Shown in pieces: positions 51,824 through 57,904 of a DNA stretch of 64,000 nucleotides (position 1 is its first letter; every line of letters begins with the position of its first letter). The notes under the pieces were generated by a model. That model saw only the letters and a program-made list of their open reading frames with translations. It did not search any database and was not told where the DNA came from. Both the position numbers and the translations under genes were made by a program. This DNA is from Geobacteraceae bacterium. Its GTDB lineage: Bacteria > Desulfobacterota > Desulfuromonadia > Geobacterales > Geobacteraceae. Location of the stretch: positions 1 through 64,000 of the forward strand of contig WSYB01000023.1 in NCBI GenBank assembly GCA_009773645.1, written 5' to 3'.

Positions 51824-52039
51824 CTATGCAGCTAAACTATAATCATCACCTTCAACACATTCATATTGTGCTCCCAGGAACGATTTTTCCTGGGGATCTT
51901 TGACGATTACCGTTAAACCGTGATTAACCGACCAAACAGCCCCACAGACGCTGCATGTCATAATGTCTTCAGCGAATCCACCTGAATGTAAATCAATTGC
52001 ATAATGTTTTTTGAGGGTTTTGCATACGAGACACTTCAT
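51824..52039 (-). CDS. small zinc-ribbon-like protein (71 residues)
   Basis: Two CXXC knuckles (CLVC near the N-terminus and CSVC near residue 30) suggest bound zinc. The ATG at 52039 has AAGGAG 7 bases upstream and a terminator follows, so it is a single-gene unit. No family name can be given. The A/T-rich composition upstream differs from the neighbourhood. Confidence 0.6.
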   Translation of the reverse strand: MKCLVCKTLKKHYAIDLHSGGFAEDIMTCSVCGAVWSVNHGLTVIVKDPQEKSFLGAQYECVEGDDYSLAA

Positions 52040-52108
52040 TAATCTTCTCCTTTTTCTATCTTTCCAGAAATTTAGTAAAACTATAAAGATGTTTTTCAAA
52101 GAACACAA

Positions 52109-52416: not shown

Positions 52417-53121
52417 ATGGTCAGCCGTACCCTCCTTACTATTATCGAGAGTATCGAACCGGGAGTCATTATTCTCAATAACGACCTCTCCGTTTCCCAC
52501 TTCAACAGGATGTTCCTGCTCCTCTTCAAAAACTTCCCGAAGGCGCGCCTCTTTCAGGGGAATGTCCTCGACTTTCACCGTGAGGAACACCACCGGAAAG
52601 TTACGGATATGCTCCAGTTGACCTCCGAGGCAAAGCGACAGATACCGCTCTCCTTGAAGATCATCAGAAGCGACGGCCAGGAGCACTACCTGCTCATCAA
52701 GCTCGTCCCCCTGGAGGACCGGGAGATGGGGGATGAAAAGATCTGCGTGCTCTTTTACGACATCACCCCCTTCATCTCCACGGAACGGAAGCTGACCAGG
52801 GTGCCGGTCACTGCCAAGGGTGAAATCCACCTGCTCAAGCCGGAAGAGATCGTCTACCTGAAGGCGGACAACATCTATTGCCGCATCAGTACCGAAGCCC
52901 ATGAGTATCACTGCGACCTGTCTCTGGGGGCTATCGGGAAGCTCCTTTCCAGTGAGATGTTTTACCGTATTCACCGCAGCTATCTCGTCAATATCACCAA
53001 AGTCCGCAAGGTCCTGCGGGACTCCGCCGAATGCTCCGTCGATGTGGGAGGGACCGAGACCCGCCTTCCCATAAGCCGCGACAAGATGCAAAAGTTTCTG
53101 GTTGAACTCGGCCTGAAATAG
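52417..53121 (+). CDS. PAS-LytTR transcriptional regulator, candidate CO sensor (RcoM-like)
   Basis: A 234-residue one-component regulator: an N-terminal PAS domain (about 5-118) and a C-terminal LytTR DNA-binding domain (about 130-232, with IVYLKADNIYC and FYRIHRSYLVN). This architecture, placed just upstream of a CO dehydrogenase operon, is that of RcoM, a haem-PAS CO sensor. Candidate haem ligands are His54, His58 or His59 and Met104, but the match to the known His/Met pair cannot be confirmed without alignment. It could also sense another ligand. The ATG has GGAAAG 5 bases upstream. Confidence 0.75.
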   Translation: MVSRTLLTIIESIEPGVIILNNDLSVSHFNRMFLLLFKNFPKARLFQGNVLDFHREEHHRKVTDMLQLTSEAKRQIPLSLKIIRSDGQEHYLLIKLVPLEDREMGDEKICVLFYDITPFISTERKLTRVPVTAKGEIHLLKPEEIVYLKADNIYCRISTEAHEYHCDLSLGAIGKLLSSEMFYRIHRSYLVNITKVRKVLRDSAECSVDVGGTETRLPISRDKMQKFLVELGLK

Positions 53122-53123
53122 TT

Positions 53124-53144
53124 CCTCACTCCCTCACCCTTCAC
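53124..53144. repeat. short heptameric repeat between the regulator and cooS
   Basis: CCTCACT, CCCTCAC, CCTTCAC in 7-bp phase, just after the regulator stop codon. The 147-bp gap to cooS also contains the cooS ribosome-binding site (GGGGAGG at 53255-53261). Confidence 0.6.
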
Positions 53145-53268
53145 TCGGTTTTTCCCGCAGTTCACAAGTCCACTCTGCCGCCAGCAAGGTACTTCTACAT
53201 TTCATGCTCCACTCATGTGTATAGTCGATTCAAAACAGTACTCAAAACCCTTTTGGGGAGGAACGCGT

Positions 53269-55194
53269 ATGAGTGATGAGGCGTGTAAGAGAGAAGACAG
53301 GCGCAGTGTCGATCCCGCAGCCGTTGAGATGTTGCGGATCGCCGACCGGGAGGGGTATGCCACCATCTGGGAGCGCTATGAGAAGCAGCAACCGCAGTGC
53401 AGCTACGGGCAGCTCGGAACCTGCTGCCGGATCTGTTCCATGGGGCCGTGCCGGATCGACCCGTTCGGTGAAGGACCTTCCCACGGCGTATGCGGCGCCA
53501 CCGCTGATACCATCGTTGCCCGGAACCTGGCGCGCATGGCGGCGGTAGGCTCTTCGTCCCACTCCGACCACGGCCGCAAGGTGGCCCAACTCCTCAAGGC
53601 CGTCGCCGATGGCAGCAATACCGATTACCGCATCACCGATGGGGAGAAGCTGCTGGCTGTGGCTGCCCGGTTGGACATCGCGACCGACGGGCGTTCACTG
53701 CCGGAGATCGCGGCCGACGTTGCTGCTGTCGCCATCAACTGCTTCGGCAACCAGGATGAAGAGCCGCTCGTCTTCCTGGAGAAGTACATGCCCAAGAAAC
53801 GCTTCGAACGACTGAAAGGGCTCGAAGAGAGCCTCTATCAGGCAACCGGGGCCAAGATCGGCTTCCTGCCGCGCGGTATCGACCGCGAGGCGGTGGACAT
53901 CCTCCACCGCACCCACTTTGGCTGCGATCACGACCCTCTCTCCCTCGTGGCGCAGTCTGTGCGCTGCTCCCTTTCCGACGGCTGGGGGGGGTCAATGATC
54001 GCGACCGAGTTGCAGGATATCCTCCTGGGGACCCCCACCATCAAGGCGGTGAAGGCCAACCTGGGCGTGCTGGAAGAGGAGAGCGTCAACGTGGTCGTCC
54101 ATGGACATGAACCGATTCTGTCGGCAAAGATCGTGGAGATGGCCCAATCGCCGGAATGCCGACAGGCGGCCGAAGCGGTCGGCGCCAGGCGGGTCAACGT
54201 GGTGGGGCTCTGCTGCACGGGCAACGAGGTGCTGCTCCGCCAGGGGGTCGGCATGGCAGGAAACGAATCCCACAGCGAACTGGCCATAATGACCGGCGCG
54301 GTGGACGCCATGGTGGTGGATGTCCAGTGCATTTATCCGGCGCTGGCCGACCTCTCTTCCTGCTTCCACACCAGGTTCATCACCACCAGCGAACAGGCCA
54401 AGATCCCCGGCGCACTCCACATCCAGTTCGACGAGCACCATGCCGACGCCATTTCCAGCCGTATCATCAAGACCGCCATAGACGCCTTCCCCAACCGGAA
54501 CAAGGGGCGGGTCTATATCCCCCAACACACGGCCACCGCCGTTGTCGGCTTCACTGTGGAGGAGATCCTCAAGGCACTGGGGGGCACGCCGCAGCCGCTC
54601 GTCGATTTGATCGTCAACGGGACCATCAAGGGGATTGCCGGGATTGTAGGCTGCAACAACGTCAAGGTGCAGCAGGACTATTTCCACCGCGTGCTCACCA
54701 CCGAACTGATCAAGCGCGATATTCTCGTCATCGGTACCGGCTGCTGGGCAGTCGCGGCCGCCAAGGCCGGCCTGATGGACCTCCCGGCGCAGGAGCTTGC
54801 CGGTCCCGGACTGCAGGCAGTCTGCAAAAAGCTCGACATTCCACCGGTCCTGCACATGGGTTCGTGCGTTGACTGCTCACGCATGCTGAACCTGGCCGGC
54901 GCTATCGCCGATCATCTGGGGGTAGATATCTCCGATCTCCCTCTGGTCGGCTCGGCGCCGGAATGGACCACGGAAAAGGCGGTGGCCATCGGGGCCTACT
55001 TTGTCGGCTCCGGCATCCCCGTTCATCTCTGGCCGCTGCCGCCGATCCTCGGCGGGCCCGCCGTAACCAGGATACTCACCCAGGACGCCAAGGATGTGCT
55101 CGGCGGCTGGTTCTTCGTGGAAGAGGACCCGGTGGCCACCGCCGCACAAATGGAAGCCATCATCATGGAACGGCGCGCCGCGCTCGGCATCTGA
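53269..55194 (+). CDS. cooS: anaerobic Ni-Fe carbon monoxide dehydrogenase catalytic subunit
   Basis: Oxidises CO with water to CO2 plus two electrons. The 641-residue protein holds the D- and B-cluster Cys set near the N-terminus (C44, C52, C53, C56, C61, C75) and the C-cluster ligands: His280 in VHGHEP, the CCTGNE Cys (315/316), C354 in DVQCIYP, C462 in GCNN, C492 in GTGCW and C533 in GSCVDC, with the catalytic Lys570. All expected residues are present. The ATG at 53269 has GGAGG 7 bases upstream. It heads the cooS-cooC-cooF-oxidoreductase operon. No energy-converting hydrogenase genes are adjacent. Confidence 0.96.
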   Translation: MSDEACKREDRRSVDPAAVEMLRIADREGYATIWERYEKQQPQCSYGQLGTCCRICSMGPCRIDPFGEGPSHGVCGATADTIVARNLARMAAVGSSSHSDHGRKVAQLLKAVADGSNTDYRITDGEKLLAVAARLDIATDGRSLPEIAADVAAVAINCFGNQDEEPLVFLEKYMPKKRFERLKGLEESLYQATGAKIGFLPRGIDREAVDILHRTHFGCDHDPLSLVAQSVRCSLSDGWGGSMIATELQDILLGTPTIKAVKANLGVLEEESVNVVVHGHEPILSAKIVEMAQSPECRQAAEAVGARRVNVVGLCCTGNEVLLRQGVGMAGNESHSELAIMTGAVDAMVVDVQCIYPALADLSSCFHTRFITTSEQAKIPGALHIQFDEHHADAISSRIIKTAIDAFPNRNKGRVYIPQHTATAVVGFTVEEILKALGGTPQPLVDLIVNGTIKGIAGIVGCNNVKVQQDYFHRVLTTELIKRDILVIGTGCWAVAAAKAGLMDLPAQELAGPGLQAVCKKLDIPPVLHMGSCVDCSRMLNLAGAIADHLGVDISDLPLVGSAPEWTTEKAVAIGAYFVGSGIPVHLWPLPPILGGPAVTRILTQDAKDVLGGWFFVEEDPVATAAQMEAIIMERRAALGI

Positions 55195-55210
55195 CCGGAA
55201 GGAGTTATTC

Positions 55211-56071
55211 ATGTGCCAGCCACATACCGATGGATTTCGCGTAGTCATCACCGGCAAGGGAGGGGTCGGGAAAACGACCCTCACCTCCTGCCTTGCCACG
55301 GTCCTGGCGCAGAACGGCATTAACGTCCTGGCAGTGGACGAGGACCCGCAGATGAACCTGCCCCATGCCCTCGGCCTCGGTGTCGAAGGGGCCTCGCGCA
55401 TCGTGCCGCTTAACCGGCATGCCGACTATATCGAGGAAAAGACCGGCATCCGCCCCGGCAAGAGCGGCTGGGGAGCCATGTTCAAGCTGAACCCCGACGT
55501 GGATGACGTGGTGGAGCGATTCGGTCTGAAAGTGGGGGAGAACCTCAACCTGCTGGTTATGGGGACGGTCAAGCAGGCCGGTGGAGGGTGCCTCTGCGCG
55601 GAAAACGTGCTCCTCGACGCCACCATCAGGCACCTGGCCCTGCGCCGGGACGAGGCGATCCTCCTTGATACCCCGGCCGGGGTCGAACATTTCGGCCGTG
55701 CCCTCGCCAAGGGTTTCAACCAGTGCCTGGTGGTTGCGGACAGCACCTTCAACGCCCTGACCGTGGCCTGTCATTCAGCTGTTCTGGCCCGCCAGATCGG
55801 CATCCCGAGTGTATACCTGGTGGTAAACCGGGTCACTGAGGGGGGAGAAGACAAGCTTGCGCGATTTCAGGAGGAGACCAGGCTCGATCTGGCCGGGGTA
55901 TTCGACGGTATGCTCATGCTGCCGGTCGAGCCACAACTGGAAGCCCTCGATCCGGAAGTGACGAGGATCATGGGAAACCGCGAGAGCAGATTCGCCGGAG
56001 CGGTCACCACGCTCGCCCTGCGGCTGAGCGCGCCCGCCTGCAGCTGTTCGTCCGCCGATTCGACACACTAA
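55211..56071 (+). CDS. cooC: CO dehydrogenase nickel-insertion ATPase CooC
   Basis: MinD/ParA-type ATPase of 286 residues that matures CooS by delivering nickel. It has the deviant Walker A TGKGGVGKTT (14-23), a CLC motif at 127-129 that is the Ni-binding CXC of CooC, and LLDTPAGVEHF as Walker B. A second CXC near the C-terminus (ACSCSS) is unusual. AAGGAG lies 6 bases before the ATG, 16 bp after cooS. Confidence 0.94.
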   Translation: MCQPHTDGFRVVITGKGGVGKTTLTSCLATVLAQNGINVLAVDEDPQMNLPHALGLGVEGASRIVPLNRHADYIEEKTGIRPGKSGWGAMFKLNPDVDDVVERFGLKVGENLNLLVMGTVKQAGGGCLCAENVLLDATIRHLALRRDEAILLDTPAGVEHFGRALAKGFNQCLVVADSTFNALTVACHSAVLARQIGIPSVYLVVNRVTEGGEDKLARFQEETRLDLAGVFDGMLMLPVEPQLEALDPEVTRIMGNRESRFAGAVTTLALRLSAPACSCSSADSTH

Positions 56072-56087
56072 ACGGGGAGAATCAACC

Positions 56088-56681
56088 ATGAAAAGGATAT
56101 TCGTCGACTATAAAAAGTGTCTGGCCTGCAAGGCGTGTGAAACCGCCTGCGCATTGGAACATCATCCCGGCGGGAACCTTTTCGGCGCCCTCGGGGACCT
56201 TAAGACTCAGATCAATGTTCGGGTGCTGGGGATCGAACAGGAAGCATTTCCCCTTTCCTGCCGGCACTGCGAGCCGGCCGACTGCCTCAATGCCTGTCCG
56301 TCAGGTGCCATCAGCCGCGATCCCGAGAGTGGTGCGGTCCTCCTCGACCCGGCGCTGTGCAAGGCATGCGCCATGTGCGCCATGGTCTGTCCCTTTGACG
56401 CCATCTCGTTCAAGGTGACCCACCGCTCCTGCTACAACAGGGATGTGGCCTACAAGTGCGACCTGTGCAACGACCGCGTCAAGGAAGGGGGAGTGCCCGC
56501 CTGCGTTGGGGCCTGTCACTCGGGCGCGCTTGTGTTTGCCGAGTATGACGCGGCACGCGGCACGCGGGCGGCCAAGAGCCTCAGGACCTATCTGCTGGGA
56601 GCCGAAGGGGTTCCGCCCCATGTAGAGCTGTTCAGGGAGCTGCGCAAGAAGGAGTTTGCCAGGCGGCGGGGAGGTGAATGA
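56088..56681 (+). CDS. cooF: CooF-like 4Fe-4S electron-transfer protein
   Basis: A 197-residue ferredoxin-type subunit with four Cys-rich sites: CLACKACETAC, CRHCEPADCLNAC, CKACAMCAMVC, and CDLC with CVGAC. It would carry four [4Fe-4S] clusters and pass electrons from CooS onward. GGGGAG precedes the ATG, and the TGA overlaps the next gene's start. CooF homologues also occur in other dehydrogenases, but the position after cooSC makes this reading the likely one. Confidence 0.9.
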   Translation: MKRIFVDYKKCLACKACETACALEHHPGGNLFGALGDLKTQINVRVLGIEQEAFPLSCRHCEPADCLNACPSGAISRDPESGAVLLDPALCKACAMCAMVCPFDAISFKVTHRSCYNRDVAYKCDLCNDRVKEGGVPACVGACHSGALVFAEYDAARGTRAAKSLRTYLLGAEGVPPHVELFRELRKKEFARRRGGE

Positions 56682-57904
56682 TGAAGGTGGTGACGGCAGG
56701 GACCGGCATGGCTGCGGCGGAGTTCGTCCAGCGTCTCCGGCTGGAGGGGTTCGACGGCGAGATCGTCATGTGCAGCGATGAGGAGTTCGCCCCCTATTCC
56801 CCGTGCGTGATCCCCTTTTACCTGGCCGGAGAGCCGATGGATACGGTCTACTGGAAGGGAAAGGACTTCTATGGGCGTTACGGGGTAAGCGCCCGGCTCG
56901 CCGATCCGATTATCGAGGTAGATGCCGAGCGGCGTCTGGTCAGGACCGCCGCCGGGAGGAGCGAGACGTATGACCGGCTCTTTTACGCCACCGGCGCGCG
57001 GAGTTGGTATCCGCGCCCCGAATGGCTGAAAACCAGGGGTGTCTTCGGCTTCAAGACCCTGACCGACATGGTGGCCATTGACCGCTACATCAGGGAACAC
57101 GGCGTCAGGAAAGCGGTCGTCTTCGGCGGCGGCTTCATCGGCGTCGACGCCGCCCTGGCGCTCCGGCACCGTGGCCTTGAGATCACCCTGGTCCATCGCA
57201 ATACGCGCGTCCTTTCCCAAATGACCGATGGAGAGGGAGGAGAATTCGCCACCCGCAAGCTGGCGGAAAAGACCGGCATTGACATCCGCCTGAGGACGAC
57301 GGTGGACGGGATCGTCGAGAACGGCGGAGAGCTATCGGCGGTGCGTTTTTCCAACGGCGACGTTATGGAAACCCCGTTACTGATCGTCTCCATCGGGGTT
57401 TCCCCCAATTCCGAGCCTCTGCGGGGAGACGACAAAGGAGTGCACGGCAATGAACAGATGCTGGCGGACCCGTGCATCTACACGGCGGGGGACGTGGCCG
57501 TAACCCGGCATGCTGTCACCAGGGCAAAGGGGGTCTATGCCACCTATCCCAACGCCATGATGCAGGCACGTACCGCCGCGCGGCATCTGTTCCGCGGCGA
57601 CGGGGCGTATGCAGGCTCCATCAATACCAACGTGCTCAAGAAGCATATCGATTTCCCCATCGTTTCGGCCGGAAGCTTTACCGGCGAGACCGTTACCTGG
57701 CACCGGGGCGACATCTGGCGCAGGGTCTACCTGCTGGACGGCATGATCAACGGCTATCTCATCATCGGCGATACCCGCATCTCCGGCTATATCTATCATC
57801 TCTACCTGTCCCGGAAGCGGGTCGACAAGACCATCAGGGCAATACTGGCCGAGCCGCGGCACGACAGCTACTATCGCAGCATGCTCGGCATGGTACCGGT
57901 TTAG
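56678..57904 (+). CDS. FAD/NAD-dependent oxidoreductase of the CO dehydrogenase operon
   Basis: A 408-residue class I pyridine-nucleotide disulfide-type flavoprotein (NADH oxidase/rubredoxin reductase family) with AGTGMAAAEFV (FAD loop), VVFGGGFIGVDAALAL (NAD loop) and IYTAGDVA. Such genes accompany cooS/cooF in several bacteria and could reduce NAD(P)+ with electrons from CO. The first ATG overlaps the cooF stop; a second ATG follows immediately. It is the last gene of the operon. Confidence 0.87.
   Translation: MMKVVTAGTGMAAAEFVQRLRLEGFDGEIVMCSDEEFAPYSPCVIPFYLAGEPMDTVYWKGKDFYGRYGVSARLADPIIEVDAERRLVRTAAGRSETYDRLFYATGARSWYPRPEWLKTRGVFGFKTLTDMVAIDRYIREHGVRKAVVFGGGFIGVDAALALRHRGLEITLVHRNTRVLSQMTDGEGGEFATRKLAEKTGIDIRLRTTVDGIVENGGELSAVRFSNGDVMETPLLIVSIGVSPNSEPLRGDDKGVHGNEQMLADPCIYTAGDVAVTRHAVTRAKGVYATYPNAMMQARTAARHLFRGDGAYAGSINTNVLKKHIDFPIVSAGSFTGETVTWHRGDIWRRVYLLDGMINGYLIIGDTRISGYIYHLYLSRKRVDKTIRAILAEPRHDSYYRSMLGMVPV

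What the first reader, a model, noticed from the sequence alone, without database searches (positions are those of the whole stretch)
52417..57904. RcoM-like PAS-LytTR regulator beside a complete cooS-cooC-cooF-oxidoreductase operon
Seen: a PAS-LytTR protein lies 147 bp upstream of cooS in the same orientation, followed by a Ni-insertion ATPase, a four-cluster ferredoxin and a flavoprotein. Known: RcoM (PAS plus LytTR) is a haem-based CO sensor linked to CO-oxidation genes in other bacteria, and it contrasts with CooA, which is a CRP-type sensor. Inference: this organism uses a LytTR-type sensor to switch on anaerobic CO oxidation, with electrons going to NAD(P)+ through the flavoprotein. The absence of an adjacent hydrogenase suggests CO detoxification or use as an electron donor for respiration.
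Basis: partly seen in the sequence, partly recalled or inferred. Interest (0 to 1): 0.75.

Follow-up and report, generated by a model that had tools for sequence, protein, structure and literature searches.

The report
Regulator beside carbon-monoxide oxidation genes
This is a known kind of bacterial gene cluster for oxidising carbon monoxide without oxygen; its switch protein resembles the known sensor RcoM but lacks one of that sensor's two iron-gripping residues, and a likely DNA landing site for it can now be pointed to.

Summary
In detail: a PAS-LytTR regulator (52417-53121) lies 147 bp upstream of cooS-cooC-cooF-FNOR (53269-57904). The cluster is already published for Geobacter sulfurreducens (GSU2099-2095; growth on CO plus fumarate, NADP+ reduction with CO, no H2 from CO in extracts) and Deferribacter autotrophicus. 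Two points I found in no paper searched. The proximal His (H54) is present in 42 of 42 family members aligned. The column of the CO-replaceable Met is Met in 11 of 11 canonical-type RcoMs but in 1 of 31 members of the window's branch, which otherwise has Leu/Phe/Ile/Val. (2) A triple direct repeat (TTCACTCG/TTCACAAG/CCAGCAAG, 20-21 bp apart, 53140-53188) lies in the rcoM-cooS gap of 12 of 12 related loci, with a -10-like hexamer 29-31 bp downstream in 11 of 12. Its geometry matches the published RcoM operator; its sequence differs. Best reading: a CO-responsive activator of its own coo operon using a His-only, probably five-coordinate heme. Heme binding and CO as the signal are untested; no experimentally characterised RcoM sequence was itself in my set.

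The parts
52417..53121 (+). rcoM-like regulator, PAS (about 8-118) + LytTR (136-227); H54 aligns with the proximal His of canonical RcoM, L80 with the Met column
53140..53147 (+). predicted operator repeat 1, TTCACTCG
53161..53168 (+). predicted operator repeat 2, TTCACAAG
53181..53188 (+). predicted operator repeat 3, CCAGCAAG
53220..53225 (+). predicted -10 element TATAGT of the cooS promoter
53269..55194 (+). cooS, catalytic subunit of Ni-Fe CO dehydrogenase
55211..56071 (+). cooC, Ni-insertion ATPase, P-loop GKGGVGKT
56088..56681 (+). cooF, ferredoxin-like electron carrier, 17 Cys
56678..57904 (+). FNOR, FAD/NAD(P) oxidoreductase

Best explanation
The 234-aa protein is a one-component CO-responsive activator of the RcoM type. 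Its PAS domain holds a heme on H54. The distal side has no Met ligand, so the ferrous heme is probably five-coordinate and CO binds an open site instead of displacing Met. The CO-bound protein then binds three direct repeats at 53140-53188, just upstream of a promoter with its -10 at 53220-53225, and turns on cooS-cooC-cooF-FNOR. CooS oxidises CO, CooC loads its nickel, and electrons run CooS to CooF to FNOR to NAD(P)+, so that CO serves as a respiratory electron donor. Shown here: the genes, the linkage, the conserved His, the missing Met, the conserved repeats and -10. Inferred: heme binding, coordination number, CO as the signal, activation, electron path.
For: Linkage: of 58 genomes (own included) 12 have a full-length regulator at least 61% identical, and these 12 have a CooS at least 80% identical beside it; the other 15 of 27 genomes with a CooS match have only CooS of 61% or less. 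In the wider set 28 of 31 window-type regulators have CooS in the fetched flank. His: 42 of 42 family members, against 0 of 30 other PAS_9 domains of the same genome at that column (5 of the 30 have His one column later). A PAS survey calls His the only invariable residue that contacts heme in the structures it compared (PMC10468136, passage cut short). Operator: a search of 12 gaps with random starts, spacing preset to 20-21 bp, found the same triple repeat in 12 of 12 (score 401 from 60 starts; 12 shuffled sets, 15 starts each, gave 211-220). A matrix from the other 11 loci scores the window site 34.5 against 15.5 for the next distinct place in 64 kb. The strict pattern occurs once in the own genome. 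-10: TAnnnT 29-31 bp after repeat 3 in 11 of 12 loci; at most 6 of 12 in 2000 shuffles. Published RcoM operator: three 8-bp direct repeats, 12-13 bp spacers, upstream of -35 (PMC11347149, passages). Electron path: FNOR scores 145.7 bits with PadH of NADH-linked phenylglyoxylate dehydrogenase, beside 145.8 with CoA-disulfide reductase, both below cut-off. Published relative: growth on CO plus fumarate, NADP+ reduced with CO, no H2 from CO in extracts.
Against: The Met column is not Met in the window protein nor in 30 of 31 branch members. No heme measurement exists here. His in this part of PAS domains is not rare: 5 of 30 control domains have it one column later. The model is poor at residues 54-58 and 71-76 (pLDDT under 50), and fold matches of the PAS part mix flavin LOV and heme PAS domains. 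A relative's CODH proteins rise on H2 or formate. The 12 loci are relatives, some near-identical, so shared ancestry adds to the repeat and -10 scores. The spacing used was chosen after I saw the repeats by eye. The published motif TTCNNGCA, as a triple, did not pick out the site. FNOR's best solved relatives are CoA-disulfide reductases.
Confidence: 0.66

Rival explanations
1. Canonical RcoM: six-coordinate His/Met heme whose Met is displaced by CO, the Met coming from somewhere other than the aligned column.
For: One alignable family with the His constant; the window protein has a Met at its own residue 104; L011 has Met at the aligned column.
Against: No Met of the PAS part is constant in the branch; window M104 is replaced by A, E and S in L010, L012 and L013.
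Confidence: 0.12
2. Heme-less PAS: the domain senses another small molecule or redox state linked to H2, formate or CO2 metabolism and only keeps the RcoM scaffold and operator.
For: CODH proteins more abundant on H2 and formate in G. sulfurreducens; the Met column is hydrophobic; LOV domains among fold matches; 5 of 30 ordinary PAS domains have a His one column away.
Against: His constant in 42 of 42 while its neighbours vary; 0 of 30 at the very column; tight pairing with one CooS type.
Confidence: 0.17
3. The branch uses a different distal ligand, for example the basic residue at position 81, so it is six-coordinate but not His/Met.
For: Position 81 is K in 29 and R in 2 of 31 and never K/R in 11 canonical sequences; a one-residue strand shift would put it at the Met column.
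Against: Arg in two members is not a usual heme ligand; a residue next to the Met column in a strand should point the other way; 8 of 30 ordinary PAS domains of the genome carry R at this column. Y114 (27 of 31) is also Y in 7 of 11 canonical ones, and position 28 varies among H, Y, C and S.
Confidence: 0.1
4. The operon mainly detoxifies CO or reactive oxygen and does not serve respiration.
For: A Carboxydothermus cluster with FNOR and rubrerythrin was proposed for that (passage).
Against: No rubrerythrin among the neighbouring ORFs scanned; the relative grows on CO as electron donor.
Confidence: 0.15

Closest known systems
Geobacter sulfurreducens GSU2099-2095 (PMC4703632)
   Same: gene content, order and orientation; one CooS in the genome; PAS-LytTR regulator first
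   Different: another species; the paper reports 27% identity of its regulator to Burkholderia RcoM, and the passages I read give no test of the heme ligands or of an operator
RcoM of Paraburkholderia (Burkholderia) xenovorans
   Same: PAS + LytTR, His in the proximal position, three direct repeats about two helical turns apart (PMC11347149), link to CO genes
   Different: His/Met heme there (PMC9670170); here the Met column is Leu, the stretch after it is three residues longer and K follows; repeat sequence differs; known target there is the aerobic cox system. Its sequence itself was not obtained here; Caballeronia (L060) and other homologues stood in
Deferribacter autotrophicus CODH-I cluster (PMC6896113)
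   Same: rcoM-cooS-cooC-cooF-FNOR
   Different: another phylum; CO oxidised with nitrate
CooA of Rhodospirillum rubrum
   Same: heme-based one-component regulator of anaerobic CO oxidation (PMC11347149)
   Different: CRP/FNR-type DNA-binding fold; the window protein has LytTR

Membership tests
RcoM (strict) | PAS sensor followed by LytTR DNA-binding domain | tested here: met
RcoM (strict) | proximal heme ligand His (His74, number recalled) | tested here: met
   H54; 42 of 42 sequences. Control: 0 of 30 at the column, 5 of 30 one column later. That it binds heme is not shown
RcoM (strict) | CO-replaceable ligand Met104 | tested here: not met
   L80 in the window; Met in 11 of 11 canonical-type and 1 of 31 window-type sequences. 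The column was set from Caballeronia L060, where Met lies 30 residues after the His, as 74 to 104 in RcoM
RcoM (strict) | operator of three 8-bp direct repeats, 12-13 bp spacers, upstream of -35 | tested here: inconclusive
   geometry found in 12 of 12 loci; published sequence TTCNNGCA not matched as a triple; binding not tested
RcoM (strict) | heme bound and CO-dependent DNA binding | not testable with these tools
   needs purified protein
RcoM (strict) | same clade as characterised RcoM | tested here: inconclusive
   31 window-type and 11 canonical-type rows fall on two sides of one branch, support 100/99; root by midpoint only, long branches flagged, no characterised RcoM itself in the tree
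CooA | CRP-type fold | tested here: not met
   LytTR instead
Ni-Fe CO dehydrogenase CooS | TIGR01702 over cut-off; cluster ligands | tested here: met
   706.7 bits, cut-off 478; Cys and His positions judged by eye on the alignment with 6t7j_B, ligand identities recalled
CODH/ACS | acetyl-CoA synthase subunit in the genome | tested here: not met
   TIGR00316 (cdhC): 0 matches in own genome; its control rang only in two methanogens, so sensitivity for bacterial AcsB is not shown
Hydrogenogenic CODH/ECH | hydrogenase genes beside cooS | tested here: not met
   neighbours scanned: LpxD; radical SAM/BATS, AAA_26, aminotransferase III. Hydrogenases elsewhere in the genome were not searched

The most novel reading that the evidence does not exclude
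A whole branch of the RcoM family (31 sequences seen here, nearly all beside anaerobic CO dehydrogenase genes) senses CO with a His-only, five-coordinate heme PAS domain, lacking the Met gate while keeping the scaffold and a triple-repeat operator. If so, Met displacement is not the universal trigger of RcoM-type proteins.
Probability: 0.43. Interest if true: 0.55.

Novelty: new variant of a known kind. Interest (0 to 1): 0.42.

Why it matters
Geobacter-type regulators have been called RcoM on overall similarity. The residue that CO replaces in characterised RcoM is missing in them, so either CO sensing works differently in this branch or the signal is not CO. The sequence gives one protein, one predicted 49-bp operator and one predicted promoter, so the question can be tested directly in G. 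sulfurreducens.

Tried and rejected
Published RcoM triple TTCNNGCA in 15 rcoM-cooS gaps: best scores 9-13 of 18 on either strand, at scattered positions. One TTCCCGCA at 53152-53159 is a full match but stands alone, inside a spacer.

Solved structure of RcoM: phmmer with the window protein matched two chains, both over the LytTR part (E up to 10); the Caballeronia protein matched none at E 0.01.

More operator sites in the own genome: the looser two-repeat pattern gave two further places, C23 and C45 (the tool's backward-pattern control gave 0). By even base composition I would expect about 1.7 by chance; not followed, no regulon claimed.

Same-geometry repeats in other groups were picked by self-similarity, without a shuffle control. 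Clear to the eye in L033/L034, L040, L046, L047; weak in L048/L049; not clear in L036, L038/L062, L039. A lead only.

Rows left out of the 42: hits that match only the LytTR or only the PAS part; L016/L029 (split frames in G044); L017, L019, L020 and L028 (longer but weak, 23-27%). L021 and L052 are shorter matches in the same genes as L173 and L172, which are kept. Kept rows are not all independent: L014 = L061 and L038 = L062, and L033-L035/L037 and L005/L006 are very alike. In the PAS control, 30 of 91 matches (those with loci) were aligned.

Paper searches for the two new points: (eight). Kerby 2008, Kerby 2012, Dent 2022 and Dent 2023 are not held, so an earlier remark there on the missing Met cannot be excluded.

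The operator and clade rows of the membership table were set to inconclusive.
Full report
What is there. [quoted passage not shown] Pfam and NCBIfam support each class. CooS scores 706.7 bits on TIGR01702 (cut-off 478); its best solved relative is 6t7j_B (E 3.2e-226). The own genome (4.74 Mb, 78 contigs) has one LytTR match and one CooS match at E 0.001 and no cdhC match (whose control rang only in two methanogens). The closest named relative met here is Geotalea toluenoxydans, 61% in the regulator, so the organism probably lies in or near the Geobacteraceae.

It is a known cluster. Geelhoed, Henstra and Stams describe GSU2099-2095 of Geobacter sulfurreducens with the same genes in the same order, growth on CO with fumarate, NADP+ reduction with CO, no H2 from CO in cell extracts, and propose RcoM control and electron flow through FNOR to NAD(P)+ (PMC4703632; abstract and passages). 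They list similar clusters in G. uraniireducens, G. daltonii and Pelobacter carbinolicus. It is reported in Deferribacter autotrophicus too (PMC6896113, passages), and a Rubrivivax paper cites Kerby 2008 for RcoM in Geobacter and Pelobacter (PMC4257681, passage).

Linkage. Of 58 genomes searched, own included, 12 have a full-length regulator at least 61% identical. The same 12 have a CooS at least 80% identical (in G026 in pieces on two contigs, 82-87%), and in each the two are neighbours. Of the 27 genomes with a CooS match at E 1e-30, the other 15 have only CooS of 61% identity or less and no such regulator. Among 31 window-type regulators gathered, 28 have CooS in the fetched flank. The three without are L015 and L037 (16 kb each read) and L027 (on a 4.7 kb contig).

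Ligand test. I aligned 42 family members. The canonical-type set is 11 sequences: Caballeronia (L060, beside ORFs that read to me as coxM, coxS and coxL; no family search), L063-L065, L209-L211, and four from the window's phylum (L048, L049, L172, L173; the first two beside CooS). No experimentally characterised RcoM is among them. His at window position 54 is present in 42 of 42. In L060 the first Met of the MM pair lies 30 residues after the His, as 74 to 104 in RcoM (74 recalled). That column is Met in 11 of 11 canonical-type sequences. In the window-type set it is L, F, I or V in 30 of 31; only L011 has Met. The window-type stretch after it is three residues longer in most, and the next position is K (29) or R (2). 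A tree puts the two sets on either side of one branch with support 100/99; the tool flagged long branches and the root is a midpoint only.

Control for the His. Of 30 other PAS_9 domains of the same genome (of 91 matches), none has His at this column, but five (L225, L230, L234, L236, L239) have it one column later. So His in this part of PAS domains is not rare, and the strength of the argument is its constancy across 42 diverse members. No other PAS position holds one ligand-type residue throughout the branch except K/R81; Y114 is Y in 27 of 31. The simplest reading is a His-only heme, five-coordinate when ferrous. AlphaFold2 from six sequences gives PAS plus LytTR at mean pLDDT 78.5, with residues 54-58 and 71-76 under 50, so the model cannot show the pocket. 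Foldseek ranks LytTR domains first, then heme PAS (FixL, Aer2, SrrB, DosP) and flavin LOV domains mixed, which does not settle the cofactor.

Operator and promoter. By eye the gaps printed showed repeats. A search with random starts over 12 gaps, allowing three 8-mers 20 or 21 bp apart, then converged on one solution in 12 of 12: TTCACTCG, TTCACAAG, CCAGCAAG in the window (53140, 53161, 53181). The best of 60 starts scored 401; 12 shuffled sets with 15 starts each gave 211-220. Within the sequences the second repeat resembles the bases 21 upstream (4.1 of 8) and 20 downstream (5.1 of 8) more than at any other offset from 9 to 40 (next 3.25). A matrix built without the window scores its site 34.5, and 15.5 for the next distinct place in 64 kb. 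The strict pattern occurs once in the own genome and once in each of three of the other 57, by position in the rcoM-cooS gap each time; the other eight orthologous loci deviate from it. A TAnnnT hexamer lies 29-31 bp after the third repeat in 11 of 12 loci (L013 has TATACC); in 2000 shuffles no offset reached more than 6 of 12. In L006 and L013 a 165-166 bp element with inverted ends sits in the gap, downstream of the repeat/-10 block in one and upstream in the other, leaving the block whole. The loci are related, so ancestry adds to these numbers; the gaps vary from 145 to 321 bases as extracted. The geometry is that reported for RcoM, three 8-bp repeats with 12-13 bp spacers upstream of -35 (PMC11347149, passages); the sequence is not TTCNNGCA.

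How it probably works. CO binds heme held by H54, and the regulator activates the promoter whose -10 is at 53220. CooS, nickel-loaded by CooC, oxidises CO; CooF carries electrons to FNOR, which reduces NAD(P)+. FNOR's top NCBIfam scores are CoA-disulfide reductase (145.8 bits) and PadH, the FAD subunit of NADH-linked phenylglyoxylate dehydrogenase (145.7), both below cut-off. Its top solved relatives are CoA-disulfide reductases, with 8c0z chain E, a possible subunit of an aldehyde-oxidising complex, sixth. The weakest step is the signal. In G. sulfurreducens the four CODH-operon proteins, but not RcoM, were more abundant on H2 or formate than in acetate-containing conditions (PMC7894505, passages), which could mean CO made inside the cell or another cue.

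Verdict. Real, ordinary in gene content, already described in relatives. New, as far as eight searches of a partial library tell, is that this branch lacks the Met by which characterised RcoM works, and that a likely operator can be located.

Noticed in passing
L006 (G020) and L013 (G009), rcoM-cooS gap: A 165-166 bp element with 18-21 bp inverted ends (AGGAGTCTGTCGGACTTA...) sits on opposite sides of the repeat/-10 block, a MITE-like natural experiment.
   Followed up: partly
L045 (G320), 162-1304: cooS is split near residue 606 by about 1.1 kb of other DNA, with the rcoM-like gene intact beside it.
   Followed up: partly
L016/L029/L249 (G044 contig C146): A decayed copy: rcoM-like fragments in two frames next to an FNOR fragment; no CooS match in that genome.
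   Followed up: no
L015/L197 (G005) and L027/L198 (G031): Window-type regulators (38-39%) without coo genes in the fetched DNA, a pair of their own in the tree; G031 has one of each kind. Target unknown.
   Followed up: partly
L204 (G078): rcoM-cooS-cooF-FNOR without a cooC match in 18 kb, like the Deferrisoma cluster mentioned in PMC4703632.
   Followed up: no
51824-52108, - strand: Small 94-aa ORF with two CxxC pairs between lpxD and the regulator, no Pfam match.
   Followed up: no
L048/L049 (G267, G387): Canonical-type His/Met RcoM beside a 43% CooS in the same phylum, so both sensor types lie beside anaerobic CO dehydrogenases.
   Followed up: partly
window 83-22660: Several PAS/histidine-kinase, response-regulator, GAF/HD and RND efflux genes among nine ORFs scanned.
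   Followed up: no
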